Source: Maylandia zebra (lineage: Eukaryota > Chordata > Actinopteri > Cichliformes > Cichlidae). From it: a stretch of 64,000 nt of DNA. A model generated the notes under the pieces. The model did no database searches, was not told the origin of the DNA, and saw only the letters and a program-made list of their open reading frames with translations. The translations under genes were made by a program, and so were the position numbers. The stretch is taken from positions 27,649,529 to 27,713,528 of the forward strand of contig NC_135185.1 of assembly GCF_041146795.1 (NCBI RefSeq), given 5' to 3'. How positions within the stretch are numbered: position 1 is the stretch's first letter; the number at the start of each line of letters is the position of its first letter. Positions 23,631-63,424 of the stretch are shown in pieces.

Positions 23631-26600
23631 ATGGAGAGCATACTTTTATTTACCCTTCTGGCTCCTTGCTGGGTAAACGCTGCAATTAAGCCAATGACTG
23701 CTACCGATGGGGACCACGAAGACCACCCCGAGTTTGGTAAGAAGCTAATTTAGCAATTCAGCCTAAGCAGAAGTTAGTTTACGGTAACATTAAAGCTATC
23801 TTCTGGATAATTTTGGTAAATAATAAATACTTTAAAGCAATGCCACTTATATTTTCTCGATCTTAGATATGTTATAACTTATTAACTCACGAAATCCCGA
23901 ACAGTTGTTAATTGCGAGCACAGGGGCGTTTTACTGCGGTCAAGTGAGCCCTCACTTACGAAGTCGCAGTCAAGCTAGCCGCCCCGCCAGCCGCACCTAA
24001 AATGTGGTTGCACTACTCTTACGTATATTACGGTAAAGGTGCCGACTGGCTTAGAAACGCAGTGTTTTCTGTCCTGACACTATTTTACTTCACAATCCAC
24101 TCCCAGTTTTGGTTAATCTCCACTTTCACCCCTGTGATCCACAGCCCAAATTACTGTATGATTCAGAGAAAATTAACAATAAAATTTACCCAATTTACTC
24201 AACTATACTTTTAATGTCCTCATCTTTGAGCTCAGATTACAGGAAAACTGAAAGAGGTGACGCAGATATCTCACTGGATTCTGACTCTGGGTGACCCCCA
24301 CTCTGCATGCTGTGATCCACAGCCAAAATTACTGTACAGTTTTTGAGAAAATTGATAGTAAACTTTGCACAATTTACTCTACTGTACTCTATATATTCTC
24401 ATCTTTGAGCTTAGATTACAGGAAAACTGTAAGAGGTGACGCAGATATTTCACTGGATTATGAATCTAGGCCATCTCCACTCTTCACCCTGTGATCCACA
24501 GCCCAAATTACTGTACAGTTTTTGAGAAAATTGATAGTAAAATCTTCCCATTTTGCTTTACTGTACTCTACATATTGACATCTTTGAGCTCAGATTACAG
24601 GAAAACTATAAGAGGTGACGCAGATATTTCACTGGATTCTGAATCTAGGCTGTCGCCACTCTTCACCCTGTCATCCACAGCCAAAATTACTGTACAGTTT
24701 TTGAGAAAATTCATGGTAAAATCTTCCCATTTTGCTTTACTGTACTCTACATATTGACATCTTTGAGCTCCGATTACAGGAAAACTATAAGAGGTGACGC
24801 AGATATTTCACTGGATTCTGAATCTAGGCTGTCGCCACTCTTCACCCTGTCATCCACAGCCAAAATTACTGTACAGTTTTTGAGAAAATTGATAGTAAAA
24901 TCTTCCCATTTTGCTTTACTGTACTCTACATATTGACATCTTTGAGCTCCGATTACAGGAAAACTATAAGAGGTGACGCAGATATTTCACTGGATTCTGA
25001 ATCTAGGCTGTCGCCACTCTGCACCCTGTCATCCACAGCCAAAATTACTGTACAGTTTTTGAGAAAATTCATGGTAAAATCTTCCCATTTTGCTTTACTG
25101 TACTCTACATATTGACATCTTTGAGCTCAGATTACAGGAAAACTGTAAGAGGTGACGCAGATATTTCACTGGATTATGAATCTAGGCTGTCGCCACTCTG
25201 CACCCTGTCATCCACAGCCAAAATTACTGTACAGTTTTTGAGAAAATTCATGGTAAAATCTTCCCATTTTGCTTTACTGTACTCTACATATTGACATCTT
25301 TGAGCTCAGATTACAGGAAAACTATAAGAGGTGACGCAGATATTTCACTGGATTCTGAATCTAGGCTGTCGCCACTCTTCACCCTGTCATCCACAGCCAA
25401 AATTACTGTACAGTTTTTGAGAAAATTCATGGTAAAATCTTCCCATTTTGCTTTACTGTACTCTACATATTGACATCTTTGAGCTCCGATTACAGGAAAA
25501 CTGTAAGAGGTGACGCAGATATTTCACTGGATTATGAATCTAGGCCATCTCCACTCTTCACCCTGTGATCCACAGCCAAAATTACTGTATGGATTTTGAG
25601 AAAATTGATAGTAAACTTTGCACAATTTACTCTACTGTACTCTATATATTCTCATCTTTGAGCTTAGATTACAGGAAAACTGTAAGAGGTGACGCAGATA
25701 TCTCACTGGATTATGACTCTGGGTGACCCCCACTCTGCACCCTGTGATCCACAGCAAAAATTACTGTATGGATTTTGAGAAAATTCATAGCAAAATCTTC
25801 CCATTTTGCTTTACTGTACTCTACAAATTGACATCTTTGGCCTCAGATTACAGGAAAACTATAAGAGGTGACGCAGATATCTCACTGTATTCTGACTCTA
25901 GGCTGTCGCCACTCTTCACCCTGTGATCCACAGCCAAAATTACTGTACGGTTTTTGAGAAAATTGATAGTAAACTTTGCACAATTTACTCTACTGTACTT
26001 TTAATATCCTCGTCTTTAACCTCACCCTTCCAGGGTGGCCTTTTGTTGTGGGCAGTCTGAGGTACACCTGTGCACTACTCATGATGTCAGATCAGCATCC
26101 TGATGTGGCACACCTGTGAGGTGGGATGGATTATCTCAATATGGCAGATGTGCCCACTACCACACATTTGGACTGATTTGTGACCACTGTTTGGGAGGGA
26201 TGGTTATATTGTGTATCTGGAATGAATTTTCGGTCTCTACGTCCATCCCATGGGGAATGGGAGCAGTAACAAAGGTGTTGCGTTTATATTTTTGTTGAGT
26301 GTATCTAAACTGTGTAGTAGTAATATGAGAAATCAGTAATCTGAGAAATGTAATTTCTCACCCTGACCGGTTGAGGCAGATGGCCGCCCCTCCCTGAGCC
26401 TGGTTCTGCCGGAGGTTTCTTCCTGTTAAAAGGGAGTTTTTCCTTCCCACTGTTGCTCATAGGGGGTCATATGATTGTTGGGTTTTTCTCTGTATGTATT
26501 ATTGTAAGGTTTAACTTATTATGTAAGTGCCTTAAGTTGACTATTGTTGTGATTAAGCACTGAATAAATAATGTCTAAAACTGAAGTTGATACTTGAGGT

Positions 26601-41600: not shown

Positions 41601-43935
41601 AGGACAAGCGACTCGACCAGCAGTATGAGGAGAACACAAAGTCATTTTATTATCCTCCAAATGTAAGTTCTTCAACTTTCCAGTGCTCACACACGCTGAT
41701 CCTGTGCACCACCGTTGCTCTCTTGCACCAGACTAACCAAACTAATCCAGTTCCATATTGCTTCTTAAAAACTGACCTCTTTAATCAAGCAGGGAGAAGA
41801 AACAGGAAGGACTGTAACTGAGGATCAGGGATTGGCCTTTTTTCATTGCAAATGAGAAATTAAGACATAAATTCAAAACTGCAGTGTAACATTTAAAGTT
41901 CAAAGTATTGCTTATATCTTATGCTGGAGCATACGGCAACCCCCTCATTGCCAGAAAACAAGATCTGTTTTTAGCTCCTCTTCTTTCCAGCTGACTTTCC
42001 TCAGATTGGCTGAGCCTTTTAAACAGAAGGTTTAACCAAAAGTCTTGTGTGTCTGCTGCTGATTTTCCTTCTCTGATCATCCTGCAGCACCAAGAGTAAA
42101 AGGAAACATGATGAAATTAGCATTTAGAGCATCTTAAGCCTGAGCTTTTAGTTCATAGGGAGCCTGGCCATGTTTTATATGTGCTTCCCACATTGAAACG
42201 GTATATGTGTGACAAAAGATGAGAAAAATCAAAATAGGCCAACTTTAAAATTTGCTAACAGTTATGGTTTTTGTTGCTGAGCTGGGAAATTGTGGTTTTA
42301 CCTTTAATATCATTATTTGATGTTGGAAAAGGCTAGTGGTAAACCAGCCCAGACCTGGAAAAATAAAAGGGTAAGAATGAGAATCAGAAGACTCTCTTTA
42401 AATTGTATAAACCAGTGGTCAGATAATCCACAAGCAATGGCCTCACTGTCACTGCTGGGTTTTCTGAATGACCTGTCCATCACTCTTTGCCTTGGAACTG
42501 CAGCAGATGGTGGAAATTTGTAGTAGAGCTCCCGCCATAGGTGAGTGTGTGTGCGACGGCTTGGTGTTGCAATGCGTTGCCATTGAGTCCATGACGGTGC
42601 ATGGTCAGTGGCCCACGTTTGGGATACTCTTGCAGTCACTTACTGCTTGATGGTAATCACTGATCCAGCTGCACATTTGCAGCCCCTCGAACTCGTCTTC
42701 ATCTGACAAATAAAGTGAGGGAGGCTCGCACAGCTTCATGTGACTGAACAGCTGTGGAGCAGCAGATCAGGAATTGCCTCAAGTAAGCAAGATTGCACTT
42801 TTGGAGTATTCAAACATCGAGACGACCAAACGGGTTTCACATTGTTGTCGTTCGTGAAATTGGATGCAGTGTGTGTCGACATTTTTCAGTTTTTAGTTGC
42901 TCTTCAAAGCCAAAACAAGAAGCGTTTAGGTGACTGTTTTTATTTTTTGTTTAGTGGCTGTGTGCACTGTGTGAGGTCCTTCTTTGGGTTTGATTGGAGG
43001 GAGAAGAAAAAGACTGGGGGGTACATTCCTCTTAAGACCTTTCTTGCAGACATTTTGACTTGTTAGAGCATTTTTAAGCGCTCGCACAAATGATCAAATT
43101 AATGATGGCTTAGTTCCATTTAGGTTTGCTTTTAAATCCTGCAGCTGAACCAATGTGTTTAATATCAGGGTGCTGGTAACCCTAAATGGATTGCAGTCAT
43201 AATTAATAAATCACATTTGCCTGACACTTCAAAATGGTCAAAGGCAGAAAGGTTTTTGTTTTTACTCATTCCCACCTTAAGCTATTGGGTGTGTTTTAAG
43301 AGTGTAGATAAGAGTAGATAGGAGCTACTTAAAGGTAGCGCAATCAGCAACATGAGGTTATTATTATAAAACATATGTTGGGGAGTTAAACTGTAAAGTT
43401 CTGGGATACATGTGATGCTCTGAATTAAACAGAATGTAGTAAAAAGGGAATGGGTGCCACCTCAGTCACACACAGCTGTGACTTGCCTCCGTCCTCACAT
43501 GCTGTTCTCCCTCTTCAGAATCAAGACGTGCTGAGCAACCTCGAGTCAGCATCCGTGCGCATCGTCAAGCCTCTTCAGCCTCCCTCCTCCTCCGGCGGCC
43601 GGACCGTGCCCTTCATCCATCAACAACAGCCTCAGCCGCAGAGCCAGGTCCGGGCCACACTCGCAACCAACACCAGTACCCCGGCCCCCGATCTGAACTC
43701 CGGCCCCACCCCGGACAGCGCAGGGGGGCTGCGGATGGCCACCATCCAGGAGGACACCAGCAGCGGCTCTCACCTGGGAGAGGAGGGCCTGCTGGAAGAT
43801 TTCACAACCGCAGGAGCCTGCTCGTCGGCTACGAAATCCTCCTTCGAGGATCTGACCGAACAGAACCTACCAGCCAAGGACCGACGGCGCCTTAAGAGGC
43901 AGGAACGCATTGATACTAAAGAGACGGAGTGCTGA
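23631..43935 (+). CDS. adam17: ADAM17 / TACE metalloprotease, 19 coding exons
   Basis: Type I membrane sheddase that cleaves TNF-alpha, EGFR ligands, Notch and other ectodomains. Exons: 23,631-23,736; 29,904-30,036; 31,304-31,437; 31,597-31,685; 32,272-32,455; 34,740-34,870; 35,050-35,136; 35,714-35,833; 36,210-36,354; 36,640-36,731; 37,099-37,251; 39,902-40,101; 40,189-40,292; 40,391-40,525; 40,835-40,962; 41,133-41,211; 41,391-41,479; 41,603-41,662; 43,519-43,935. They join in frame to 861 residues (human 824; same exon number). Visible: signal peptide; Cys switch PKVCGY (C188); furin site REKR 220-223; zinc site [11 protein letters not shown] 415-425; Met-turn VMYPIA (M445); disintegrin/Cys-rich '[15 protein letters not shown]'; juxtamembrane CANDIS-like '[13 protein letters not shown]'; TM ~681-702; C terminus 'DTKETEC'. 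The tail is ~27 residues longer than human, and the human Thr735-Pro site is replaced by a Ser-rich stretch. The paralog (a or b) is undecided. Confidence 0.96.
24110..26020 (+). repeat. Left array of ~179-bp tandem repeats
   Basis: About eleven head-to-tail units, each containing 'ctgtgatccacagcc', 'attactgtacagtttttgag', 'gattacaggaaaact' and 'gaggtgacgcagatat'. Successive inner units are exactly 179 bp apart (for example at 24,754, 24,933, 25,112 and 25,291). At least three sub-types differ in one ~40-bp block: 'tcttcccattttgcttt', 'tttgcacaatttactct', and an outermost 'atttacccaatttactcaac'. The 60-codon open frames here are by-products of the period and not genes. Confidence 0.93.
26027..26302 (+). 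repeat. Dispersed teleost DNA-transposon-like fragment nested in the foldback centre
   Basis: Reads 'gatgtcagatcagcatcctg', 'cacacctgtgaggtgggatg', 'ttatctcaatatggcaga' and ends 'gtgttgcgtttatatttttg'. These are phrases of a widespread non-coding teleost repeat often grouped with non-autonomous DNA transposons. The family assignment is from memory and moderate. Confidence 0.5.
26355..26570 (+). repeat. Dispersed teleost repeat with 'CTGGTTCTGCCGGAGG' core
   Basis: Contains 'gcctggttctgccggagg', 'tttcttcctgttaaaaggga' and 'gctcatagggggtcatatga', ending in an A-rich 'actgaataaataat'. Inverted copies occur at 12,690-12,960 and in each tandem unit after the 509-aa ORF. Here it sits inside the unique centre of the foldback element. 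Confidence 0.7.
26710..29640 (-). repeat. Right array of ~179-bp tandem repeats, inverted
   Basis: Roughly sixteen units of the same repeat as the left array, reverse-complemented ('ggctgtggatcacagggtg', 'atatctgcgtcacctctta', 'agttttcctgtaatctga'). The same sub-types appear in a different order. The outermost unit (about 29,520-29,630) is the counterpart of the outermost left unit, so the arms were once matched and the inner parts expanded independently. Confidence 0.93.
30037..34739 (+). other. adam17 introns 2-5
   Basis: These are introns between the short prodomain exons. They are AT-rich (especially 33,180-33,480) and contain the SINE at 33,952-34,236. A stretch near 33,530-33,630 has phrases ('gtgacaaaacgttcgttcc') like a common fish repeat. 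No other gene was seen. Confidence 0.6.
33952..34236 (+). repeat. Diverged tRNA-derived SINE with LINE-type tail
   Basis: Reads 'gtgcagcggttagcactgtt', 'acctcacagcatgaaggttc', 'cacagtccaaaaacatgca', 'gattctaaattgtccgtag', 'gcgaatggttgtttgtgtg', 'aacctgtcaggggtgtacc' and ends 'gggtagatggatta'. This is the full architecture of a common teleost SINE, with several internal deletions. It lies in adam17 intron 5. Confidence 0.7.
37252..39901 (+). other. adam17 intron 11
   Basis: A 2.65-kb intron separating the catalytic and disintegrin exons. It hosts the LINE insertion at 38,385-39,088. That insertion sits in T-rich sequence ('ttttagttaaccataataac' near 39,335), itself typical of another dispersed repeat. 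Confidence 0.6.
38385..39088 (-). mobile_element. 5'-truncated Rex3/RTE-like LINE, C-terminal ORF still open
   Basis: On the minus strand an open frame (39,099 to 38,410) gives 229 residues with LINE C-terminal phrases '[19 protein letters not shown]', '[11 protein letters not shown]'-like text, '[19 protein letters not shown]' and '[18 protein letters not shown]'. It ends in a (GATG)n tail. Flanks 'tttcgtttccat' and 'ttttgtttccat' could be a one-mismatch target duplication. The reverse-transcriptase core is missing, so it is immobile, but the uninterrupted frame says it is young. The clade name is from the tail type and general resemblance. Confidence 0.8.
41663..43518 (+). other. adam17 intron 18
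   Basis: A 1.86-kb intron before the last exon, donor 'gtaagt' and acceptor 'cctcttcag'. Overlapping open frames on both strands at 42,313-42,650 have no recognisable product. No named repeat was seen. Confidence 0.6.
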
Positions 43936-45020
43936 GAGAGGAAAAACAAAAAACAAGTGCGTTTGCACAAGCGTCCTGATATTTGTTTTGTTTTTTTTAG
44001 GGAACACGAACAAATGTGCAGCATCATATGCTTTTCTTTCTTATTGCAACCGGTGTTAAAGCGTAACATATCTTTCTCAGATCTTAGTGCTCTAAAAGTG
44101 TTTATTCAGTCACATGAAATTAGATTGAGTCACTGAACAAATACAACACAGGAAGTCTCAAAGCCCTCTAACACTAAATCCAAATAAGTTCATGTTTTTG
44201 TGCCTTTTTCACTAAGGTATCTATTTCCATGGCCATTTGAAGCTTTTGAGTGTCTGTGGAAATAAACCTGCCAGTTCTTTAAACAATGTTCATTTTGTTT
44301 AAGCTAATGGCTAAATGTTTTTCTGACAATGCAAATATTGGTCAGGAACAAAAAGAGATTATATTAAATATTTAACTGTAATCCCTGCAGATTGAAAATG
44401 ATTACACAAATACTTATTCGTAGGTTTATTATGTGTTATATGGTAAGTAACCGTAACATTTCTTGCTCCAAACAGCGCCTAGAAGCAGAACAAACCTTAG
44501 CAGTACGATGCAGAATTCTCTATATTAATGTTGTAAGTGTAACTATTTTTCAGTGAAGGAAACATTTACTGGAAGTGCAAACAACACATAAAGGAGGAGT
44601 TGGTCTAGAAGTATTTTAACATCACTGGAGAATTGAAGTTTACATGCTTACACATTCTGTCTCATCAGCTGTTTCTTTGAGGTACTGTGTAAGTAGCATT
44701 ATTGTGTTATTTGGTAGGTGGAGCTTAAAGTGGGGAGAAGTAATATCAGCTTTGCTAAAGCTTCAGTATTGTGATGTTTGAACCTGTAGAAAACAATATG
44801 GTGCTTTTTTGGATTTTGTGACCAACTATCCCACGGTGACTCTCATCTATATACAATTCCCAGCAGCAGACAACTCCAACATTCTGTATTTAATATTTGA
44901 ATATATATTTTTTAATTTTCTGTCTGTGTGCCAAGGTGAGCTATGCACCTGTTTATTGTTACCTGCTGTGTCTCATGTTAAGAAAACATGTATGGTCAAA
45001 ATAAAAACACTAGCTTTTAG
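43936..45020 (+). other. adam17 3' UTR
   Basis: Runs from the stop codon to just after AATAAA at 45,000-45,005. Its last ~170 bases (from 44,838) are also the first bases of the tandem unit, so the same poly(A) signal recurs at the start of units 2 and 3. The UTR end is inferred and not proven. Confidence 0.55.
45000..45005 (+). terminator. Candidate adam17 poly(A) signal
   Basis: AATAAA in 'gtcaaaataaaaacactag', the first strong signal at a plausible distance (~1.07 kb) after the stop codon. It is duplicated with the tandem unit. Confidence 0.55.
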
Positions 45021-46340
45021 TGTACAGGATGGATGTGAATGTTAGTGAACAAAACAGGCCTGCTGTATATCAGATGATGTGTATATTCTTAATGTTTTTA
45101 TGCTTACAAAACTCTACTCAAGTTTCTTTTAAAGTTTTTGCTTGCATTTCCTACACAAATGTCAAAATAATAAAAAATCTTTGTGCACTGATACATGGTC
45201 TCACATTTTTATCTATTCAGCTGCTGTGTGATGCACACCAGTGGTCCTCACTGCGCAATGTTAAAAGAAAGGCTTCATTTTTATCAGCTGGTTTTCACAT
45301 AGGCCAAACATCTCTAAGGATATTTCTCCATTGTCTATAAATACATGTCAACAACATGTAGCAACAACTACTACTGATTCATACATGTCCATCACTTTGG
45401 ATGAGTGCATGTTTTTTTGCACACTGTCATCCTGTGCACTGTCCCAGCATGATTAGACCTTAGCGATGAACCTTGTTGCCAAAAAGCAAAGCCAGTGGGA
45501 GCAACATCTTCCAGAGCTAAAGCTCCGTTCACCAGCACTACTGGTGAGCCTTGTCTATAACAATGCCATGTTTACATCACATACCAAATGTAGTCATTTT
45601 TTTTAAATTAACAGAATGATATATAGGATGTGATACTGATTACATAGTACTGATCCTCACCTGAGTACATTTTGTTTTATAATTTCCCTGAGGTCCAGAA
45701 CATCTCCATCATAATGATCATATCTTGTTTGGGGATGCTGCCCTGCCACACAGTTTGTAGGCCTCAAAAACCTGTTGATCTCAGTACACCTGCAGATTCA
45801 AGGAGACATACTTTTACAGGTGACAGTATGTACTAAAGTATATGTAATTTAAACTTTTTTCATAACATTATGAAGTTGTGTGATATGCGAGTGAGAGATT
45901 ATGACAAACATCCAGAAAAGTCTTGTGATCATGCAGTCATGTCTGAAACTTCTCCCACACCGAGTGCAAGACAGGGTGGAAAAACCCTTTAATTCATAGT
46001 GTTCTTGTTGCAGTGAAACGCTAAAAGATTTAAAACAAAAAATAAGGGCACATAAAGTGACACTGCTTGCTTTTTGCAAACTACTTTCACAAAAAGCCCA
46101 TTATGGATTATGCTCAAGTACACTGTTGTGTAAAATTTACTTTAGTAAATTTACTTGTTTCATGCTTGGTCATGCAAGTTCTGTAAGTGAGTGAAAATAA
46201 TTCCACAATTTTTTTTTAGACATTTTTAGACACTCTAAGCTTTTTGAAAAAGAAAATTATCAAATTGTAACACAGAGTGTGGTCAGACTGCTTTTGTTAC
46301 ACACAAATACCTGTACACGTTTGTAAATCTTAGTTTACGC
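45021..46340. other. Unit-1 segment with no recognised gene
   Basis: Repeated at about 51,510-52,828 and 58,011-59,329. Short open frames on both strands (for example 45,020-45,340 plus and 45,849-46,079 minus) stay open in all copies because the copies are nearly identical. They show no recognisable domain, promoter or splice context. Confidence 0.5.
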
Positions 46341-46344
46341 TAAG

Positions 46345-46832
46345 AGATCAGAGGAGAAGGGTGGAGTGCCCACTCCAGGTCAGGGATGAGTTCCTCCTCC
46401 AAGTGGAAGAGTTTAAGTATCTCAGGGTCTTGTTCACGAGTGATGGGAGAAGGGAGCAGGAGATCGACAGACAGATTGGTGCTCTCAATTTACTGGTCAA
46501 TCTAGGTCCCTACCCTCACCTGTGGTCACGAGCTGTGGGTAGTGACTGAAAGAACAAGACTGCAGATACAAATGGCTAATATGAGCTTCCTCAGAAGCGT
46601 GGATGGCCTCTCCCTTAGAGGGGAGGCCAAGTGGCTTCTTTCCACATGGAAAGAAGCCACTTGAGGTGGTTCGGGCATCTGAGAAGAACACCTCCTGGGG
46701 TGAGGTGATCCGGGCATGTCCCACTGAGAGGAGGCCCCCGTGCCTTGGTGTTCCCCCAAACAAGCTGAAGGAGGTGGGTGGGGAGAGGGAGGTCTGGGCT
46801 TCTTTGCTTGGGCTGCTGCCCCCGTGATCCGC
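46345..46832 (+). pseudogene. Truncated Rex3/RTE-like LINE fragment in unit 1
   Basis: Plus-strand relative of the LINE at 38,385-39,088. It has '[19 protein letters not shown]' and 'SDGRREQEIDRQIGA', then a deletion, then 'CPTERRPPCLGVPPNKLKE' and '[15 protein letters not shown]'. It is internally deleted and frame-broken. A perfect 16-bp-arm hairpin lies inside it at 46,628-46,663. Copies: 52,835-53,322 and 59,334-59,821. Confidence 0.75.
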
Positions 46833-47254
46833 GATCCAGTAGAGTTGAGTATGTGGGTTACGCCCATTAAAAACTTGCCAGATTTTCTAATACAATACCA
46901 AACAGCACATTCTGCTATTCACTCTTGCTTTGAGCTTTGATACCCAGGTGCTCCAGTCATGTTCCTGATTGATACAAGTTTGATTTACTGAATACTAGCT
47001 AAGCAATCTAAGCAATCTACAGAATCTACAGAATCAACAAATTTCTTCCAGTCAGCGAATGCTGCATATAATTTTATTTTTTGCTTGTTGCAACGTGCAT
47101 AAAATTAAAAGGTTAAAACTAATGAAACTAGTTTTGAAAATTTTTTTTTTATTTGATTCAATTTTATATCATGAAATATGCAGAAAAAATAGAATTGGGC
47201 TGAAAGGTCTAATGCTTCATAACGTATTCAGGTTGTGTATCATATTTTTTAAAA

Positions 47255-47388
47255 GTAACTAAGTAAGAAAGTAACAAATTACTTACAAAAATAAGCAATC
47301 AGTAAAGTAATGGGATTAATTTCTTGGAGAAGTAATCAGTAATTAGTAAATAATTACTATTTTCAAGTAACTTGACCAACACAGGGTA
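47255..47388 (-). repeat. Fragment of a 'gtaac'-rich non-autonomous DNA transposon (unit 1)
   Basis: Repeated motifs 'aagtaactaagtaa', 'aagtaatgggattaat', 'agtaatcagtaattag' and the terminal phrase 'aagtaacttgaccaacac' are characteristic of a dispersed fish repeat usually classed with hAT-like non-autonomous elements. Copies: about 53,745-53,878 and 60,235-60,367. Confidence 0.4.
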
Positions 47389-48543
47389 TTACCGTATGAA
47401 GTGGCAGATGTTAAAGAAACTGTTCGGCTACATGTCCAGTAGGTGGTGCAGACGACTGTCAGGATCCACTAATTCACCACAGTCAGAGTCTTTTGGATTA
47501 CCTCTGCATCAGCTGAAGGAGTTAGTTTATTTAGTTTTTTGGTTATGTCATAGAATAAAAAGGCCCACATTTTGGAAGGATTTAAGCCCATAAATAAACA
47601 GCAGAAATATCCATGTATAGAAAACCTTTTTCTATTAGAAAAAATTCTAATAATGTATAGATACATATCAATACTCAATAACTCATTGTTCCACTTACAA
47701 TAGCTGTAAGTGCAGCTTACCATGACTTGAGTGTTATCTCACACATCAACCACGGTAAAGCGTGTTATAGACAAGCCAGCCCACTGTGACCATTTCATGC
47801 TTTGCCTCTTTCAAAGTGTGAAATATACATGCATGCAAAAATTGCAGTAAGCTGTGGTTACAGCAGAGGGAGACATTTTATTTCAAGCCAAAGTGAAAAG
47901 AACCACAGGAAAGCATTTAAAAATGAAATTATTAACACATTTACAATTAAATATACATCAGCTGCCTAGCACTGCTCTGCTCACTACTGTGATATGGAGT
48001 TGCACACAAGTGTTTCTGTTTGCAACACTTTGCAAGATGTTGAAAGAGATGGAAGGAAAGATCTTACTGTGAACTAGCTCCGGCCTTGAGTTGAATTATT
48101 TCTTCAAGAAGTCACTTGGATGAGTGACGAAATGTTTCTCCCACACATAGGGTTTTAGATAGCACCTCCTCTCCTGACTTAGCTTGTTTTTGTTTGTTAT
48201 TTTGGCCTGTGTTCACCAGGGAGTTAAGTTTTCAGTGGAGACAAATAAACCACCGTTCACTTAATAAATAGTTTTTTCTTCCCAAACCGTCACTTCCTTT
48301 TTAACCCTTATGCTACGTTCCTGTACCCCTAGACTGGGGCGTAACACATCTGAAATGAAAAGCCTGTAAACGTGTGTTCCAGCCTCCTGACTTTGCTGGC
48401 ACTCGGTCTTCATACTCGACTCCAGATCTGGACTTGTGTTGAACTCGACTGAGGTGGTCTGATCAGACACAGCGCTGCTGTTTGCTGCAGCTGTCCAAAA
48501 ATCACAGACAAAGTCAGGAATGTTTTTACCTCGTCTAGCTGCT

Positions 48544-48571
48544 CTGTGTGTGTGTGTGTGTGTGTGTGTGT
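48544..48571. repeat. (GT)n microsatellite, unit 1
   Basis: About 28 bases of GT repeat. The equivalents are longer at 55,033-55,062 (unit 2) and 61,527-61,578 (unit 3). Confidence 0.9.
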
Positions 48572-48696
48572 ACAGGTCACATGACAGCACAGCATTTTCT
48601 ACCCACAGTTTGAACTGAGCAAGAAATAACAAATGTATTTATTCAACTTACAGACAATAAAAAAACAAACAGGAATCAGTGTAAAATTTAATAACT

Positions 48697-48702
48697 TTTA
48701 TT
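48697..48702 (-). terminator. Poly(A) signal of the 509-aa gene, copy 1
   Basis: AATAAA on the minus strand ('catcaataaaagttatt'), about 190 bases after the stop codon. Conserved in copy 2 (55,188-55,193) and copy 3 (61,704-61,709). Confidence 0.6.
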
Positions 48703-48733
48703 GATGTTAACTTTTTAAAAAGTTATTAAAAAG

Positions 48734-48880
48734 AAAACCCCAACAGAAAAACCCCTCTGAGCAAGCACTTGGCGACAGTGGGGAAGAAAAACTCCCTTTT
48801 AAGAGGGAGAAACTTCCGGCAGAACCAGGCTCAGTGAGGGGACAGCCATCTGCCGCGACCGTTCCAAGGGGTTATCACAA
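48734..48880 (-). repeat. Dispersed 'CTGGTTCTGCCGGAAG' repeat forming the 3' UTR of the 509-aa gene (unit 1)
   Basis: Reverse complement of the element at 26,355-26,570: 'tccggcagaaccaggctc', 'aaaaactcccttttaagag', 'agcaagcacttggcgacag'. It begins within ~10 bases of the ORF stop codon, so the predicted mRNA tail is transposon-derived. Copies: 55,225-55,371 and 61,741-61,887. Confidence 0.75.
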
Positions 48881-48887
48881 TTTTTTT

Positions 48888-50417
48888 CTACAATGCATCA
48901 ACCTTGTTTTGTCTCCTGGTGAAACAAAACAGTCGGCCTATAGATGAGAAAAACCGACGTATGCAACTTGGCTTCTTCGAAAGTTTGGCTGCCTCTTCTA
49001 TGAAAATTTTAACAATCGTATTGTCGACTGTTGGTTCATTTAATTCCATGTTTTGCAGAACTACTTCTGCCTCTTGCCACTGTTTACACAGGGCTTTGAA
49101 AATCACCTTCTCAAAGTTTTTGAACTTCCTTAAGGGGATTTGATCAATTTCATCCCTGATTTTAGCCCAGATTTTTTCGCTAAGCCTCTTGTAGATGGTT
49201 AAAACTCTTTCTGGACTTATGACTTTACCTGATTTTTTTATAACCCGCTTAACTAGTTCTTCCATACATGTTTCCACAAAAAATCGGTATTTTTCTTTGT
49301 TTTGAGACAATTCATCCTTTGCTACCAAAGGGTGTTTTTTGAATTGATTTTGCATGCTGGCTTCATGTTGAGCCGAGGATTTCTTTGGGGTTACATCATT
49401 TTCCAAAGAGGTTCCTGCTTTATCTACAGCCTGCGTGGTGTCACGGTTTTTCTTGTCTATTGGAGTTCTGGGCTCGTCAGATGTATCAATGATATTTGTG
49501 GCAACATTTTCTGCTGTGTTGTTCACGTTGACTGTTGTTTTCTGTTGTTCAGGAGCTGTCTGTGTCTCCTTTGAGGCCACTGTTGTTGTGATGTTTTCTG
49601 TGATGTTGATCAAATCCCTTGTTTTCTGTAGAATCACAGCCTTAATGTGATCTGCCAGCGATGCATTATCCTCTGAGTTTTCAGGTGTTTCCATGGTATT
49701 TTGGATATTAGTGATAAGTGTGGCACCAGCGGAATTTTCTGCTGTGCTGTTCACGTTGACTGTTGCTTTCTGTAAAATAACAACTGGCACACAGATTAGA
49801 TTTCCCATGATGCGGTCACCTGTGTTAGAGGTCTGTGCAAGTTCAGGAGCTGTTTCTGTCTCCTCTAAGGCCACTGTTGTTGTGCTATTTTCTGGGATGT
49901 TTAACAAATCCATTGCTTTCTGTAGAATCACAGCCTTAATTTGATCTGCCAGCGATGCATAATCCTCTGAGTTTTCAGTTGTTTCCGTGGTATTTTGGAT
50001 ATTAGTGATAAATGTGACATCAGCGGAATTTTCTGCTGTGCTGTGCAAGTTGGCTGTTGTTTCCTGTGAAATATGAGCTGGCATTTCCGTGTTGCGGTCA
50101 ACTGTGTTAGAGGTCTGTGCAAGTTCAGGAGCTGTCTGTGTCTGCTTTAAGGCCACTGTTGTTGTGCTAGTGACAGCAGTGTCCTGGCAAAACCTCAGTT
50201 CTGCACCTGCTGACAGTGAGCATAGGGCAATGACATTATCTACAAAATTACATAGCCTTCCTATGGTGGCATTTTCGGCGTAATCAGACCGCAACTGTTG
50301 CCACTGCTCATGTGTAACATTATTTAGCAATTCCTCTAGCAGTGGCCTAACATCATTTGCAGGAGTGGAATGACTCCTGACATTGTCTGGATTGCTCCTA
50401 GCTGTGTTGTTGTCCAT
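48888..50417 (-). CDS. Unknown 509-aa protein, copy 1 (intronless)
   Basis: I do not recognise this protein. It is one uninterrupted frame with the first ATG ~86 bases below a TATA box and a stop just before a dispersed repeat. Residues ~20-80 look helical ('DVRPLLEELLNNVTHEQWQQ'). Residues 84-310 are Thr/Asn/Glu-rich and built of internal repeats: 84-177, 178-275 and a partial one from 276, each starting TTTVA and holding 'ETENS/ETPENSED.ASLAD.IKAVILQ'. A linker with 'EPRTPIDKKNRDTT' follows. Residues ~368-475 form a Lys/Glu-rich, probably helical module ('FFVETCMEELVKRVIKKSGK', 'RVLTIYKRLSEKIWAKI'). The end is basic and amphipathic with two Cys ('CIRRFFSSIGRLFCFTRR'), perhaps membrane-touching. 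No signal peptide or catalytic motif is seen. It is tail-to-tail with adam17. The long open frame, promoter and poly(A) signal argue for a real gene. Confidence 0.75.
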   Translation of the reverse strand: MDNNTARSNPDNVRSHSTPANDVRPLLEELLNNVTHEQWQQLRSDYAENATIGRLCNFVDNVIALCSLSAGAELRFCQDTAVTSTTTVALKQTQTAPELAQTSNTVDRNTEMPAHISQETTANLHSTAENSADVTFITNIQNTTETTENSEDYASLADQIKAVILQKAMDLLNIPENSTTTVALEETETAPELAQTSNTGDRIMGNLICVPVVILQKATVNVNSTAENSAGATLITNIQNTMETPENSEDNASLADHIKAVILQKTRDLINITENITTTVASKETQTAPEQQKTTVNVNNTAENVATNIIDTSDEPRTPIDKKNRDTTQAVDKAGTSLENDVTPKKSSAQHEASMQNQFKKHPLVAKDELSQNKEKYRFFVETCMEELVKRVIKKSGKVISPERVLTIYKRLSEKIWAKIRDEIDQIPLRKFKNFEKVIFKALCKQWQEAEVVLQNMELNEPTVDNTIVKIFIEEAAKLSKKPSCIRRFFSSIGRLFCFTRRQNKVDAL

Positions 50418-50502
50418 TTTGCTTCAATATCTATTTGTTTGCTGTTAATGTCTTCTCTCTGTTTGTTAAAGCGAGCGTTAGAAAAAACAGAGTTGCAGAG
50501 GG

Positions 50503-50600
50503 CTATTTATAGGTTTTTGTCTGTATGACGTCTTTGAAGCCCCGCCCACTTCAAGTGTGACGTCTTTGAAGCCTTTGATCTAAGCCCCGCCCACTTCGAG
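50503..50600 (-). promoter_or_regulatory. TATA/GC-box promoter of the 509-aa gene, copy 1
   Basis: Minus-strand CTATAAATAG at 50,503-50,512 is a consensus TATA box. Upstream lie two GC boxes (GTGGGCGGGG, plus-strand coordinates 50,540-50,549 and 50,585-50,594) and two copies of 'tgacgtctttgaagc' starting at 50,526 and 50,558. Each of those contains a CRE half-site. The start site would be near 50,475, leaving a ~55-base 5' UTR. Confidence 0.65.
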
Positions 50601-50638
50601 CAAAAAAAGAATGCGCTCGGAGAGTGTGGTTTGTTTGT

Positions 50639-50666
50639 CTCTCTCTCTCTCTCTCCCCCCCCCCCC
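50639..50666. repeat. (CT)n(C)n tract, unit 1
   Basis: A CT run of about 16 bases followed by 12 C, just upstream of the 509-aa promoter. Confidence 0.9.
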
Positions 50667-50779
50667 AAGCTTCATCACAGCCTCCCATAATAATAACTTT
50701 AGTAATGGTAGCAGTTAAAATATTGTCTGGTTTCATTTGGAACAACGATAGTTGTTTCGTTTATCGTTGATTGTTGATC

Positions 50780-50924
50780 TATTACAGTCGACCAGGTGAC
50801 AACAATCACGTTGAAAAATCATTTATTTATAGTTGGCCGGAAACTAAAGCTGCTGTCACTTGGACTATTCCGTAGCACCCACCCGAGTAGTCGTCCTCGT
50901 CCCTGCACTGCACGTCGATCTCAG
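50780..50924 (+). other. Possible plus-strand exon end with strong splice donor (unit 1)
   Basis: A segment richer in G+C ends in 'cgatctcag|gtaagaatg', an excellent GT donor at 50,925, and is followed by AT-rich intron-like DNA. With the nearby promoter elements it could be a first exon transcribed divergently from the 509-aa gene. Repeated with donors at about 57,426 and 63,954. No partner acceptor or recognised coding sequence was found. Confidence 0.3.
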
Positions 50925-51326
50925 GTAAGAATGTATTTATTTAGTCATTGTTTGAATGCTGAATTTGGAAAAACAGTCAAGATTGCTTGATATTTATAGT
51001 CTATTAAAATGTATATTATAGTATATTTAAAATGTGGGGAAAATTTCTCAATAGAAATGTCTAAAATATCATAATTTGGTTCCCAAGTATAAATAACATT
51101 TAAAGCTATCTTGGACAGAAGGAAAAGAGTATGTATTTCTTAGAAAACGCGAAATCTGCACAAACATACCATTTTCATGTCATAATGTTCTTTCTGTTAT
51201 AAAGCTATATTAGCAAAGGTGCTGTAAAGTTGTTAGCAGTGTGTCAGCTTGGTGACCTGCCACAGAGTACCTTTGTGACGTCATTCGCTATGCTCCAGAT
51301 CGGATGGGTGGTGCAGGACGCCCGAC
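50925..51326. other. Right end of unit 1, no recognised gene
   Basis: AT-rich DNA ending in a more GC-rich stretch with 'tttgtgacgtcattcgctat' (a CRE near 51,277) just before the unit junction. Copy in unit 2 at about 57,426-57,827. In unit 3 it is cut off by the window end. Confidence 0.4.
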
Positions 51327-52834
51327 GACTCTCATCTATATACAATTCCCAGCAGCAGACAACTCCAACATTCTGTATTTAATATTTGAATATATATTTT
51401 TTAATTTTCTGTCTGTGTGCCAAGGTGAGCTATGCACCTGTTTATTGTTACCTGCTGTGTCTCATGTTAAGAAAACATGTATGGTCAAAATAAAAACACT
51501 AGCTTTTAGTGTACAGGATGGATGTGAATGTTAGTGAACAAAACAGGCCTGCTGTATATCAGATGATGTGTATATTCTTAATGTTTTTATGCTTACAAAA
51601 CTCTACTCAAGTTTCTTTTAAAGTTTTTGCTTGCATTTCCTACACAAATGTCAAAATAATAAAAAATCTTTGTGCACTGATACATGGTCTCACATTTTTA
51701 TCTATTCAGCTGCTGTGTGATGCACACCAGTGGTCCTCACTGCGCAATGTTAAAAGAAAGGCTTCATTTTTATCAGCTGGTTTTCACATAGGCCAAACAT
51801 CTCTAAGGATATTTCTCCATTGTCTATAAATACATGTCAACAACATGTAGCAACAACTACTACTGATTCATACATGTCCATCACTTTGGATGAGTGCATG
51901 TTTTTTTGCACACTGTCATCCTGTGCACTGTTCCAGCATGATTAGACCTTAGCGATGAACCTTGTTGCCAAAAAGCAAAGCCAGTGGGAGCAACATCTTC
52001 CAGAGCTAAAGCTCCGTTCACCAGCACTACTGGTGAGCCTTGTCTATAACAATGCCATGTTTACATCACATACCAAATGTAGTCATTTTTTTTTTAAATT
52101 AACAGAATGATATATAGGATGTGATACTGATTACATAGTACTGATCCTCACCTGAGTACATTTTGTTTTATAATTTCCCTGAGGTCCAGAACATCTCCAT
52201 CATAATGATCATATCTTGTTTGGGGATGCTGCCCTGCCACACAGTTTGTAGGCCTCAAAAACCTGTTGATCTCAGTACACCTGCAGATTCAAGGAGACAT
52301 ACTTTTACAGGTGACAGTATGTACTAAAGTATATGTAATTTAAACTTTTTTCATAACATTATGAAGTTGTGTGATATGCGAGTGAGAGATTATGACAAAC
52401 ATCCAGAAAAGTCTTGTGATCATGCAGTCATGTCTGAAACTTCTCCCACACCGAGTGCAAGACAGGGTGGAAAAACCCTTTAATTCATAGTGTTCTTGTT
52501 GCAGTGAAACGCTAAAAGATTTAAAACAAAAAATAAGGGCACATAAAGTGACACTGCTTGCTTTTTGCAAACTACTTTCACAAAAAGCCCATTATGGATT
52601 ATGCTCAAGTACACTGTTGTGTAAAATTTACTTTAGTAAATTTACTTGTTTCATGCTTGGTCATGCAAGTTCTGTAAGTGAGTGAAAATAATTCCACAAT
52701 TTCTTTTAGACATTATTAGACACTCTAAGCTTTTTGAAAAAGAAAATGATCAAATTGTAACACAGAGTGTGGTCAGACTGCTTTTGTTACACACAAATAC
52801 CTGTACACGTTTGTAAATCTTAGTTTACGCTAAG

Positions 52835-55224: not shown

Positions 55225-55371
55225 AAAACCCCAACAGAAAAACCCCTCTGAGCAAGCACTTGGCGACAGTGGGGAAGAAAAACTCCCTTTTAAGAGGGAG
55301 AAACTTCCGGCAGAACCAGGCTCAGTGAGGGGACAGCCATCTGCCGCGACCGTTCCAAGGGGTTATCACAA
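55225..55371 (-). repeat. Dispersed repeat after the ORF, unit 2
   Basis: Duplicate of the element at 48,734-48,880. Confidence 0.75.
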
Positions 55372-55378
55372 TTTTTTT

Positions 55379-56908
55379 CTACAATGCATCAACCTTGTTT
55401 TGTCTCCTGGTGAAACAAAACAGTCGGCCTATAGATGAGAAAAACCGACGTATGCAACTTGGCTTCTTCGAAAGTTTGGCTGCCTCTTCTATGAAAATTT
55501 TAACAATCGTATTGTCGACTGTTGGTTCATTTAATTCCATGTTTTGCAGAACTACTTCTGCCTCTTGCCACTGTTTACACAGGGCTTTGAAAATCACCTT
55601 CTCAAAGTTTTTGAACTTCCTTAAGGGGATTTGATCAATTTCATCCCTGATTTTAGCCCAGATTTTTTCACTAAGCCTCTTGTAGATGGTTAAAACTCTT
55701 TCTGGACTTATGACTTTACCTGATTTTTTTATAACCCGCTTAACTAGTTCTTCCATACATGTTTCCACAAAAAATCGGTATTTTTCTTTGTTTTGAGACA
55801 ATTCATCCTTTGCTACCAAAGGGTGTTTTTTGAATTGATTTTGCATGCTGGCTTCATGTTGAGCCGAGGATTTCTTTGGGGTTACATCATTTTCCAAAGA
55901 GGTTCCTGCTTTATCTACAGCCTGCGTGGTGTCACGGTTTTTCTTGTCTATTGGAGTTCTGGGCTCGTCAGATGTATCAATGATATTTGTGGCAACATTT
56001 TCTGCTGTGTTGTTCACGTTGACTGTTGTTTTCTGTTGTTCAGGAGCTGTCTGTGTCTCCTTTGAGGCCACTGTTGTTGTGATGTTTTCTGTGATGTTGA
56101 TCAAATCCCTTGTTTTCTGTAGAATCACAGCCTTAATGTGATCTGCCAGCGATGCATTATCCTCTGAGTTTTCAGGTGTTTCCATGGTATTTTGGATATT
56201 AGTGATAAGTGTGGCACCAGCGGAATTTTCTGCTGTGCTGTTCACGTTGACTGTTGCTTTCTGTAAAATAACAACTGGCACACAGATTAGATTTCCCATG
56301 ATGCGGTCACCTGTGTTAGAGGTCTGTGCAAGTTCAGGAGCTGTTTCTGTCTCCTCTAAGGCCACTGTTGTTGTGCTATTTTCTGGGATGTTTAACAAAT
56401 CCATTGCTTGCTGTAGAATCACAGCCTTAATTTGATCTGCCAGCGATGCATAATCCTCTGAGTTTTCAGTTGTTTCCGTGGTATTTTGGATATTAGTGAT
56501 AAATGTGACATCAGCGGAATTTTCTGCTGTGCTGTGCAAGTTGGCTGTTGTTTCCTGTGAAATATGAGCTGGCATTTCCGTGTTGCGGTCAACTGTGTTA
56601 GAGGTCTGTGCAAGTTCAGGAGCTGTCTGTGTCTGCTTTAAGGCCACTGTTGTTGTGCTAGTGACAGCAGTGTCCTGGCAAAACCTCAGTTCTGCACCTG
56701 CTGACAGTGAGCATAGGGCAATGACATTATCTACAAAATTACATAGCCTTCCTATGGTGGCATTTTCGGCGTAATCAGACCGCAACTGTTGCCACTGCTC
56801 ATGTGTAACATTATTTAGCAATTCCTCTAGCAGTGGCCTAACATCATTTGCAGGAGTGGAATGACTCCTGACATTGTCTGGATTGCTCCTAGCTGTGTTG
56901 TTGTCCAT
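55379..56908 (-). CDS. Unknown 509-aa protein, copy 2
   Basis: Second copy in unit 2, full length with the same start, stop, TATA box and poly(A) signal. The only amino-acid difference from copies 1 and 3 is residue 167 (Lys to Gln, AAA to CAA, at about 56,408). At least one silent change is visible near 55,671 (G to A on the plus strand). No frameshift or stop has arisen, so either selection is acting or the duplication is too recent for decay to show. Confidence 0.75.
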   Translation of the reverse strand: MDNNTARSNPDNVRSHSTPANDVRPLLEELLNNVTHEQWQQLRSDYAENATIGRLCNFVDNVIALCSLSAGAELRFCQDTAVTSTTTVALKQTQTAPELAQTSNTVDRNTEMPAHISQETTANLHSTAENSADVTFITNIQNTTETTENSEDYASLADQIKAVILQQAMDLLNIPENSTTTVALEETETAPELAQTSNTGDRIMGNLICVPVVILQKATVNVNSTAENSAGATLITNIQNTMETPENSEDNASLADHIKAVILQKTRDLINITENITTTVASKETQTAPEQQKTTVNVNNTAENVATNIIDTSDEPRTPIDKKNRDTTQAVDKAGTSLENDVTPKKSSAQHEASMQNQFKKHPLVAKDELSQNKEKYRFFVETCMEELVKRVIKKSGKVISPERVLTIYKRLSEKIWAKIRDEIDQIPLRKFKNFEKVIFKALCKQWQEAEVVLQNMELNEPTVDNTIVKIFIEEAAKLSKKPSCIRRFFSSIGRLFCFTRRQNKVDAL

Positions 56909-56993: not shown

Positions 56994-57091
56994 CTATTTA
57001 TAGGTTTTTGTCTGTATGACGTCTTTGAAGCCCCGCCCACTTCAAGTGTGACGTCTTTGAAGCCTTTGATCTAAGCCCCGCCCACTTCGAG
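56994..57091 (-). promoter_or_regulatory. TATA/GC-box promoter of the 509-aa gene, copy 2
   Basis: Identical arrangement. The TATA box is at 56,994-57,003, with both GC boxes and both 'tgacgtctttgaagc' repeats present. Confidence 0.65.
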
Positions 57092-61740: not shown

Positions 61741-61887
61741 AAAACCCCAACAGAAAAACCCCTCTGAGCAAGCACTTGGCGACAGTGGGGAAGAAAAACT
61801 CCCTTTTAAGAGGGAGAAACTTCCGGCAGAACCAGGCTCAGTGAGGGGACAGCCATCTGCCGCGACCGTTCCAAGGGGTTATCACAA
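61741..61887 (-). repeat. Dispersed repeat after the ORF, unit 3
   Basis: Duplicate of the element at 48,734-48,880. Confidence 0.75.
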
Positions 61888-61894: not shown

Positions 61895-63424
61895 CTACAA
61901 CGCATCAACCTTGTTTTGTCTCCTGGTGAAACAAAACAGTCGGCCTATAGATGAGAAAAACCGACGTATGCAACTTGGCTTCTTCGAAAGTTTGGCTGCC
62001 TCTTCTATGAAAATTTTAACAATCGTATTGTCGACTGTTGGTTCATTTAATTCCATGTTTTGCAGAACTACTTCTGCCTCTTGCCACTGTTTACACAGGG
62101 CTTTGAAAATCACCTTCTCAAAGTTTTTGAACTTCCTTAAGGGGATTTGATCAATTTCATCCCTGATTTTAGCCCAGATTTTTTCGCTAAGCCTCTTGTA
62201 GATGGTTAAAACTCTTTCTGGACTTATGACTTTACCTGATTTTTTTATAACCCGCTTAACTAGTTCTTCCATACATGTTTCCACAAAAAATCGGTATTTT
62301 TCTTTGTTTTGAGACAATTCATCCTTTGCTACCAAAGGGTGTTTTTTGAATTGATTTTGCATGCTGGCTTCATGTTGAGCCGAGGATTTCTTTGGGGTTA
62401 CATCATTTTCCAAAGAGGTTCCTGCTTTATCTACAGCCTGCGTGGTGTCACGGTTTTTCTTGTCTATTGGAGTTCTGGGCTCGTCAGATGTATCAATGAT
62501 ATTTGTGGCAACATTTTCTGCTGTGTTGTTCACGTTGACTGTTGTTTTCTGTTGTTCAGGAGCTGTCTGTGTCTCCTTTGAGGCCACTGTTGTTGTGATG
62601 TTTTCTGTGATGTTGATCAAATCCCTTGTTTTCTGTAGAATCACAGCCTTAATGTGATCTGCCAGCGATGCATTATCCTCTGAGTTTTCAGGTGTTTCCA
62701 TGGTATTTTGGATATTAGTGATAAGTGTGGCACCAGCGGAATTTTCTGCTGTGCTGTTCACGTTGACTGTTGCTTTCTGTAAAATAACAACTGGCACACA
62801 GATTAGATTTCCCATGATGCGGTCACCTGTGTTAGAGGTCTGTGCAAGTTCAGGAGCTGTTTCTGTCTCCTCTAAGGCCACTGTTGTTGTGCTATTTTCT
62901 GGGATGTTTAACAAATCCATTGCTTTCTGTAGAATCACAGCCTTAATTTGATCTGCCAGCGATGCATAATCCTCTGAGTTTTCAGTTGTTTCCGTGGTAT
63001 TTTGGATATTAGTGATAAATGTGACATCAGCGGAATTTTCTGCTGTGCTGTGCAAGTTGGCTGTTGTTTCCTGTGAAATATGAGCTGGCATTTCCGTGTT
63101 GCGGTCAACTGTGTTAGAGGTCTGTGCAAGTTCAGGAGCTGTCTGTGTCTGCTTTAAGGCCACTGTTGTTGTGCTAGTGACAGCAGTGTCCTGGCAAAAC
63201 CTCAGTTCTGCACCTGCTGACAGTGAGCATAGGGCAATGACATTATCTACAAAATTACATAGCCTTCCTATGGTGGCATTTTCGGCGTAATCAGACCGCA
63301 ACTGTTGCCACTGCTCATGTGTAACATTATTTAGCAATTCCTCTAGCAGTGGCCTAACATCATTTGCAGGAGTGGAATGACTCCTGACATTGTCTGGATT
63401 GCTCCTAGCTGTGTTGTTGTCCAT
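61895..63424 (-). CDS. Unknown 509-aa protein, copy 3
   Basis: Third copy in unit 3, identical in protein sequence to copy 1. One silent change is visible in the fourth-last codon region (GCA to GCG at about 61,901). Promoter and poly(A) elements are retained. Its CT/C tract upstream is the longest of the three, which could alter promoter spacing for anything reading the other way. Confidence 0.75.
   Translation of the reverse strand: MDNNTARSNPDNVRSHSTPANDVRPLLEELLNNVTHEQWQQLRSDYAENATIGRLCNFVDNVIALCSLSAGAELRFCQDTAVTSTTTVALKQTQTAPELAQTSNTVDRNTEMPAHISQETTANLHSTAENSADVTFITNIQNTTETTENSEDYASLADQIKAVILQKAMDLLNIPENSTTTVALEETETAPELAQTSNTGDRIMGNLICVPVVILQKATVNVNSTAENSAGATLITNIQNTMETPENSEDNASLADHIKAVILQKTRDLINITENITTTVASKETQTAPEQQKTTVNVNNTAENVATNIIDTSDEPRTPIDKKNRDTTQAVDKAGTSLENDVTPKKSSAQHEASMQNQFKKHPLVAKDELSQNKEKYRFFVETCMEELVKRVIKKSGKVISPERVLTIYKRLSEKIWAKIRDEIDQIPLRKFKNFEKVIFKALCKQWQEAEVVLQNMELNEPTVDNTIVKIFIEEAAKLSKKPSCIRRFFSSIGRLFCFTRRQNKVDAL

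What the first reader, a model, noticed from the sequence alone, without database searches (positions are those of the whole stretch)
48888..50417. Uncharacterised 509-aa intronless gene with a convincing promoter
The ORF has a consensus TATA box, two GC boxes, a short 5' UTR and a poly(A) signal, and survives intact in three copies. Its protein has no motif that I recognise: a repetitive acidic Thr/Asn-rich half, a basic helical module, and an amphipathic Cys-containing tail. TATA-driven, single-exon, multicopy genes are often restricted in tissue or inducible, such as germ-line, egg or immune genes. That is only a suggestion.
Basis: partly seen in the sequence, partly recalled or inferred. 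Interest (0 to 1): 0.8.

Follow-up and report, generated by a model that had tools for sequence, protein, structure and literature searches.

The report
Giant intronless gene family, LINE-type tail
The gene is real and belongs to a family of more than two hundred open single-exon fish genes; nearly all those examined share a folded RNA element in their mRNA tails that a jumping gene also carries, but what the proteins do is unknown.

Summary
The ORF is real: minus strand, 50417 to 48888, 509 aa, in a 6.5-kb tandem repeat with 8 intact copies. It belongs to a large superfamily without a Pfam match. In the window's own genome, about 125 loci of its helical-module branch have open frames (hand count), and 100 of 103 scored places of a linked coiled-coil branch have no stop. 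Thirteen subfamily promoters, at protein identities down to 17%, share GC-box, HMG, CRE and TATA sites. The unexpected part is the 3'UTR: in 52 of 55 fetched ORFs a ~120-nt element lies close to the stop, always in sense. It has 6-8 pairs with two-sided changes and diverges less than its flanks in all 11 pairs compared. A young one-ORF L2-type LINE has the same element in its 3'UTR; a 42-nt core has 7,693 copies with at most 3 mismatches. I think it is a cis-acting signal for intronless RNA, kept by genes and LINE alike. Its function, the direction of transfer, expression and protein function are inferred or unknown. Interferon and NF-kB consensus sites are absent from those promoters. Two open paralogs lack the element at its usual place, and folding energies are mostly unremarkable.

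The parts
48888..50417 (-). 509-aa intronless ORF, copy 1
55379..56908 (-). 509-aa ORF, copy 2
61895..63424 (-). 509-aa ORF, copy 3
48891..49322 (-). conserved C-terminal helical module (residues 366-509) with basic-aromatic tail PSCIRRFFSSIGRLF
   Evidence: predicted helical, low confidence
50166..50414 (-). N-terminal stretch shared with C9 genes (residues 2-84, E about 1e-4)
49547..50169 (-). acidic Thr/Asn-rich half with an internal tandem duplication (86.5% identical DNA). By eye its 'SLADQIKAVILQK' stretches recall helix 1 of the module; the profile found no second module in this protein
50504..50511 (-). TATA box, copy 1 (copies 2, 3: 56995-57002, 63511-63518)
50526..50564 (-). two CRE-type sites (50558-50564, 50526-50532)
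50540..50592 (-). two GC boxes (50585-50592, 50540-50547) and an HMG/TCF-type site ATCAAAGG (50572-50579)
48752..48870 (-). structured LINE-type 3'UTR element, copy 1
   Evidence: (138.6 bits)
55243..55361 (-). same element, copy 2
61759..61877 (-). same element, copy 3
48638..48702 (-). AATAAA signals (48697-48702, 48638-48643) and GU-rich downstream stretch (48650-48664)
44838..51327 (.). first tandem unit of about 6.5 kb (approximate borders)
26359..26465 (+). solitary LINE-type copy of the element
   Evidence: 106.4 bits
12814..12921 (-). solitary, decayed LINE-type copy of the element
   Evidence: 75.6 bits

Best explanation
The window gene is one member of a very large, fast-evolving superfamily of intronless genes encoding alpha-helical or coiled-coil proteins, amplified mostly in tandem arrays. 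The members examined have compact promoters with GC-box, HMG, CRE and TATA sites, one coding exon, and a conserved ~120-nt folded RNA element in the 3'UTR, homologous to the 3'UTR of a one-ORF L2-type LINE. Shown: the family, its open frames, the shared promoter sites, the element, its conservation and covariation, and its presence in the LINE. Inferred: the element acts in cis after transcription (export, stability or translation of unspliced RNA), which is why an intronless gene family and an intronless LINE both keep it; and the arrays make much mRNA in a short time, in germ line or cleavage-stage embryo.
For: Family: 8 open C19 copies and relatives on many contigs; coiled-coil branch 100 of 103 scored places without stop; the two are linked through gene C14. 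Promoters of 13 subfamilies: TATA 12, CRE 12, GC box 12, HMG 12 of 13, against 22, 12.5, 11 and 34% of 5,000 random 350-bp windows. Element: in 52 of 55 fetched family ORFs in sense, 0 of 55 in antisense; 7 of the 55 loci had been chosen by the element, so 45 of 48 without them, many of these near-identical copies. Divergence is lower than in the flanks, e.g. C19/C9 K 0.12 against 0.66 (25 columns) and 0.70. Covariation: 6 pairs with two-sided change against 1.8 +/- 0.9 in shuffles (15 rows); 28 such cells against 9.8 +/- 2.3 (19 rows, second structure). The clade-B variant lies at 35 places in the genome: 32 directly 3' of listed family matches, 2 one step beyond listed array genes, 1 elsewhere (positions held), so it is not being refreshed from the LINE. 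The window gene lacks the terminal hairpin and (ATTGA)n that LINE copies have (by eye), so mobility does not explain why it keeps the element. The LINE has endonuclease and RT domains in one 1,031-codon frame.
Against: Two paralogs with open frames (C1/L028, C4/L024) have no element at the usual place; C4 and C22 also lack the promoter sites by eye and were not among the 13. Single-sequence folding beats shuffles clearly in 1 of 6 elements (z -2.97; the others -1.05 to 0.10). The second structure shows no excess of pair types (321 of 500 shuffles reach it), 7 of 500 reach its pair count, and two competing 5' foldings exist. C17 of the window's clade still has a changed form of the terminal hairpin (by eye). 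C21a and C16b elements are nearly identical to the LINE and unresolved from it, so insertion or replacement is likely there. dN/dS near 1 in recent copies. No expression or function data. Covariation among related sequences can partly reflect shared descent.
Confidence: 0.5

Rival explanations
1. LINE hitch-hiker: the genes are large non-autonomous retroposons whose mRNA is copied by the L2-type LINE through the shared tail; arrays formed later.
For: Shared 3' tail, no introns, spread over many contigs. L2-clade LINEs, one-ORF ZfL2-2 among them, recognise a 3' stem-loop (PMC4176376, passages seen).
Against: Promoter sites upstream of the start and a GU-rich stretch downstream of the AATAAA are shared between subfamilies, which points to DNA-level copying. 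The terminal hairpin and (ATTGA)n are missing from the window gene (by eye). Target-site duplications were not tested.
Confidence: 0.15
2. Passive descent: a LINE inserted once in the ancestral 3'UTR and has since been homogenised by gene conversion with abundant LINE copies, without function.
For: 7,693 core copies with at most 3 mismatches are available as donors; C21a and C16b tails group with the LINE.
Against: The clade-B variant is found almost only at the genes. Clade-B genes group together in the element tree with C7 outermost, as in the protein tree. Two-sided pair changes are in excess.
Confidence: 0.15
3. The LINE took its 3'UTR element from the gene family rather than the reverse.
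For: On the unrooted element tree the LINE copies sit with C21a and C16b, inside the spread of gene elements.
Against: The tree is unrooted, short and partly unresolved; from memory, related L2 tails occur widely in other fish, which I could not test.
Confidence: 0.2
4. Decoy or self-binding: the element is bound by the LINE protein or by the family's own proteins, so that these mRNAs compete with LINE RNA (LINE control).
For: The same model finds the element in LINE and genes; many copies and rapid amino-acid change; basic C-terminal tails in most subfamilies.
Against: No RNA-binding domain recognised; no binding data.
Confidence: 0.12
5. Inducible immune genes.
For: Fast-evolving multigene family.
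Against: No ISRE or NF-kB consensus in any of 13 promoters; CRE/GC/HMG/TATA instead.
Confidence: 0.05

Closest known systems
L2-clade one-ORF LINEs such as zebrafish ZfL2-2 (PMC4176376, passages seen)
   Same: The dispersed carrier of the element is a one-ORF EN-RT LINE with a structured 3'UTR. Its L2 assignment is from recall.
   Different: The window gene has no EN or RT, its own promoter sites and poly(A) signal, and no terminal hairpin or short-repeat end.
Early zygotic genes of fish: short, often intronless, young (PMC4654234, passages seen); zebrafish miR-430 and over 350 znf copies on chr4 (PMC6370886, passages seen)
   Same: Intronless, short, multicopy arrays.
   Different: Timing of expression unknown here; different proteins; LINE-type 3'UTR element.
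Cis elements for export of intronless RNA: cytoplasmic accumulation regions, retroviral CTE, GC-rich RBM33 targets (PMC9186391, passages seen)
   Same: A structured element of GC 0.54-0.63 at the genes in a genome stretch of GC 0.36-0.46.
   Different: Function not tested; not in Rfam.
Clustered intronless histone genes (recalled; mentioned in PMC4654234, passages seen)
   Same: Clustered, intronless, conserved 3' RNA structure.
   Different: AATAAA signals present here; unrelated proteins and RNA element.

Membership tests
L2-type LINE | endonuclease and reverse transcriptase domains | tested here: not met
   window protein has no Pfam match; the dispersed carrier L053 has both
L2-type LINE | the LINE's structured 3'UTR element | tested here: met
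L2-type LINE | terminal hairpin and (ATTGA)n end | tested here: not met
   absent from the C19 3'UTR by eye; ATTGA-type end in 8 of 10 LINE copies
SINE | tRNA-like or other small-RNA head with Pol III promoter | tested here: not met
   no tRNA and no Rfam match in the window; TATA-type promoter with a 509-aa ORF
Retrocopy / processed pseudogene | lost promoter, copy ends at the poly(A) site | tested here: not met
   shared promoter sites, shared downstream GU-rich stretch; the C22 copy, which did lose its promoter, extends past the poly(A) site
Interferon or NF-kB inducible gene | ISRE or NF-kB consensus in the promoter | tested here: not met
   0 of 13 for both over 350 bp
Early zygotic / germ-line gene | transcription in embryo or gonad | not testable with these tools
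   no expression data at hand
Any Pfam family | match above gathering score | tested here: not met
   no family member scanned reached a cut-off (one search gives E-values only, best 0.0087)
Known fold | confident structural match | tested here: inconclusive
Rfam family | match above gathering score | tested here: not met
   (best 18.2 bits against a cut-off of 49.5)

The most novel reading that the evidence does not exclude
A hidden superfamily of hundreds of intronless genes and a young one-ORF L2-type LINE form a co-evolving pair built on one RNA element. The family proteins (coiled coil or helical modules, mostly with a basic-aromatic tail) bind that element on their own mRNAs and on LINE RNA, and so either supply the nucleic-acid-binding role for which this LINE has no ORF1, or restrain it.
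Probability: 0.12. Interest if true: 0.92.

Novelty: new variant of a known kind. Interest (0 to 1): 0.7.

Why it matters
If right, more than two hundred open genes of a vertebrate without a recognised family share a post-transcriptional RNA element with a LINE. That is a natural system to ask how unspliced mRNAs are exported and translated, and how a retrotransposon and a gene family come to share a structure. The element also works as a finder: it led to coiled-coil arrays that the earlier protein searches had not listed.

Tried and rejected
Tried without result: Pfam, PHROGs, NCBIfam and PDB sequence searches (weak SMC, GAS and GIT hits to coiled-coil members look compositional); viral relatives (2 stretches matched a pattern, none confirmed); fold search (no fold stands out for a low-confidence helical model, and absence proves nothing); tRNA and Rfam scans. 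I considered that the window gene is an ORF1 of the LINE: rejected, since L053 and L054 show one long frame, no second frame of 100 codons in their shared stretch on that strand, and no similarity to family proteins (best E 0.22). I considered positive selection: one pair has 33 replacement to 3 silent changes (P 0.029), one of seven pairs tested and not corrected, so not claimed. Three coding sequences in that script (C17a, C17b, C16a) held 1-8 codons upstream of the assumed ATG, and C22 has no ATG. Whether the RFX-type X-box matters is open: 4 of 13 promoters, not in the window gene. Ten answered paper searches listed no paper on this family or element; for I saw only the first 10-12 of 100, 118, 31 and 74 papers. 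One search looked for pieces of the element itself in full text and found none. Heyn et al. 2014 is recalled; it is not held.

Rows dropped before counts: for the structure alignment A2 (15 rows) three near-identical genes of the 18 (C21a2, C8, C21e); for A5 four of the seven coiled-coil loci were added (L055, L057, L058, L060). The C16b row is cut by its locus end. For the 13 promoters I used one gene per subfamily and left out C22, C4, C1, C14 and C8.

Species: probably an African cichlid, from two giant contigs (C7 69.5 Mb, C3 64.4 Mb) beside others of 31-50 Mb; this is recall, not a test. Promoter motif names are consensus labels from memory; no factor binding is shown. That L2 tails like this one are widespread in other teleosts is recall.

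Full report
Observation. The ORF at 48888-50417 exists on the minus strand and encodes 509 aa. It recurs at 55379-56908 and 61895-63424 in a 6.5-kb head-to-tail repeat, 99.0-99.5% identical in the longest self-matches. In the own genome (G000, 962 Mb, 63 contigs; window at C19:27649529-27713528) the array has 8 copies without stops. Pfam, PDB, PHROGs and NCBIfam give no usable match for the window protein.

Family. Protein searches of the own genome with the window protein and three subfamily members listed 93, 97, 116 and 106 matches; the tool scores only the best candidates, so these are lower bounds. By hand count, about 125 separate loci have open frames of 316-621 codons and no stop inside the match (the C22 copy, which has no ATG, not counted). 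Broken copies also exist, for example in the C21 7.45-7.50M cluster and four C21 9.54M copies with one TGA. Many lie in tandem arrays, e.g. 13 copies on C7 near 11.8M and 17 on C16 near 16.3M. The members fetched have one coding exon; introns in UTRs were not tested. They share a C-terminal helical module. A profile built from these same sequences finds one or two weaker upstream copies of it in C9, C21b, C4, C5a, C21a and C1 (E 1e-6 to 1e-18); in the C17-type genes such hits are not significant (E 0.2-2.3) and in the window protein and C22 there is none. Invariant columns include E382 and W417 of the window protein (13 rows). N-terminal halves differ: acidic repeats in the window gene, long coiled coils in others.

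Selection on the protein. Nei-Gojobori dN/dS between subfamilies is 0.32-0.79 at dS 0.18-0.90; between recent copies it scatters from 0.28 to 2.97. About 4-5% of point changes in these frames would create a stop, so open frames at dS near 0.5 suggest that frames are maintained. Silent changes are in excess in three of seven pairs tested, the distant ones (P 9e-13, 2e-6, 1e-3), and not in the four recent ones. The protein evolves fast under moderate constraint.

Promoter. In 13 subfamilies, up to 350 bp upstream of the ATG hold TATA in 12, CRE-type in 12, GC box in 12, HMG-type in 12 and an RFX X-box in 4; random 350-bp windows from the same loci and the window, some promoters among them, give 22, 12.5, 11, 34 and 1%. 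ISRE and NF-kB consensus: 0 of 13. C4 and C22 were not among the 13 and by eye lack these sites. Six coiled-coil genes show a TATA-like box in 6, a relaxed CRE in 6, HMG in 5 and a GC box in none; the TATA-like and relaxed CRE patterns were widened after looking.

The 3'UTR element. The fetched subfamilies except two lineages carry the same ~120-nt element starting 25-281 nt after the stop; in two coiled-coil genes it overlaps the stop codon. By script, 52 of 55 family ORFs in the fetched loci have it in sense and none in antisense. The three misses are C4 (L024), C1 (L028) and a truncated copy with only 67 bases of 3' flank (L033). Seven of the 55 are coiled-coil loci found through the element, so without them it is 45 of 48, many being near-identical array copies. 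C1 lacks the element cleanly where its sister C21a has it. A covariance model, built from 15 of these elements, scores 98.9-139.6 bits where the element is complete, 111.5 and 81.5 in L029 and L030 (cut by the locus end), 36-50 bits in decayed antisense copies upstream of C17-type genes, and 34.5 bits 1.2 kb downstream of C4.

Conservation and structure. In 11 pairs the element differs less than its flanks: 2.9-5.4 fold against the 5' flank in nine, 1.2 fold in C16c/C11 and 26 fold in C21a/C16b; 1.4-8.3 fold against the 3' flank in the ten pairs that have one. It has 0-2 gap columns except in C21a/C16b, where a locus ends. RNAalifold of 15 elements gives 23 pairs, 6 with two-sided change; against 500 shuffles that is 6 against 1.8 +/- 0.9, none reaching it. 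With four coiled-coil elements added it is 7 pairs and 14 cells against 2.2 and 3.1. Another fold, preferred by RNAalifold on the larger set, has 95.8% of cells paired and 28 two-sided cells against 9.8 +/- 2.3; 7 of 500 shuffles reach its pair count and 321 of 500 its number of pair types. Both share the stems at columns 56-60/87-91 and 64-69/76-81. Folding energies are unremarkable for five of six sequences. There is no Rfam match.

LINE carrier. A 42-nt core with up to 3 mismatches occurs 7,693 times in the genome, 0 in the reversed-pattern control. Ten copies fetched from C1 are dispersed; six (L047-L052) share over 600 bp with each other in most comparisons, including an upstream frame end like that of LINE reverse transcriptases (recall), and 8 of 10 end in ATTGA-type repeats. 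Long copies L053 and L054 share 3.7 kb at 99.4% (3' ends cut by the fetch), with a 1,031-codon frame holding endonuclease and RT domains. L2/Maui type is my assignment from recall. Copies without a gene also lie in the window at 26359-26465 and 12814-12921.

Gene versus LINE. On an unrooted tree the window's clade (C19, C22, C9, C17, C5a, C21b, C14) splits from the rest at 97/93; clade-B genes form a group (97/90) with C7 outermost, as in the protein tree; C21a and C16b are unresolved among the LINE copies. The clade-B variant occurs at 35 places: 32 lie directly 3' of family matches (C8:12824310, C21:9557679) one step beyond listed array genes, and 1 elsewhere. The clade-A variant occurs at 684 places, some LINE-like; its listed places showed arrays on C3, C7 and C8. 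All 7 stretches fetched from them held single-exon coiled-coil ORFs of 395-596 aa. A search with one lists 103 scored places, 100 without stops (hand count). They are tied to the helical-module genes by C14, whose coiled coil matches C8cc (1e-21) and whose module matches C4, C21b, C5a and C9, and weakly C19 (5e-4); matches between coiled coils are weaker proof of descent than others.

Mechanism. Shown: genes, shared promoter sites, open frames, and a conserved folded element shared with the LINE. The window gene lacks the LINE's terminal hairpin and repeat end (by eye; C17 of the same clade keeps a changed hairpin), and promoter sites and a GU-rich stretch beyond the AATAAA are shared between subfamilies, so copying was at DNA level and mobility does not explain retention. 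The simplest use common to a LINE and to intronless mRNA is export, stability or translation without splicing; such elements are known for intronless and viral RNA (PMC9186391, passages). This step is inference. Array size, TATA promoters and missing introns fit genes that must be transcribed fast, as in early embryos (PMC4654234 and PMC6370886, passages); also inference.

Verdict. Tandem intronless families and transposon-derived UTR elements are each known kinds; the combination on this scale is a new variant.

Noticed in passing
window 24120-25999 and 26710-29619: Two large arrays of a 179-bp satellite in opposite orientation, with a solitary LINE-type tail between them.
   Followed up: no
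window 38410-39099 (-): 229-aa ORF that reads like the C-terminal end of another LINE reverse transcriptase (recall; no Pfam match).
   Followed up: no
window 43450-43935 (+): 161-aa ORF just before the array, perhaps an exon of a host gene; no Pfam match.
   Followed up: no
L010, L016, L025, L027 upstream regions: RFX X-box-like sites (e.g. GTTGCTAGGCAAC) in 4 of 13 subfamily promoters, absent from the window gene.
   Followed up: partly
L009 (C22): An 89% identical copy that lost the ATG and promoter but has an open frame of 521 codons, with about 250 bp inserted in its 3'UTR.
   Followed up: partly
own genome C3 44-60M, C12 7.6-8.0M, C13 31.6M, C7 61.3M: Large sets of single-exon coiled-coil genes, several with a KKKKRFFSFFR-type tail; contig C3 has the most places in the list.
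   Followed up: partly
L035-L037, L038-L042 3'UTRs: Several clade-B 3'UTRs hold a long inverted repeat after the element (e.g. AAAATGTCC..GGACATTTT).
   Followed up: no
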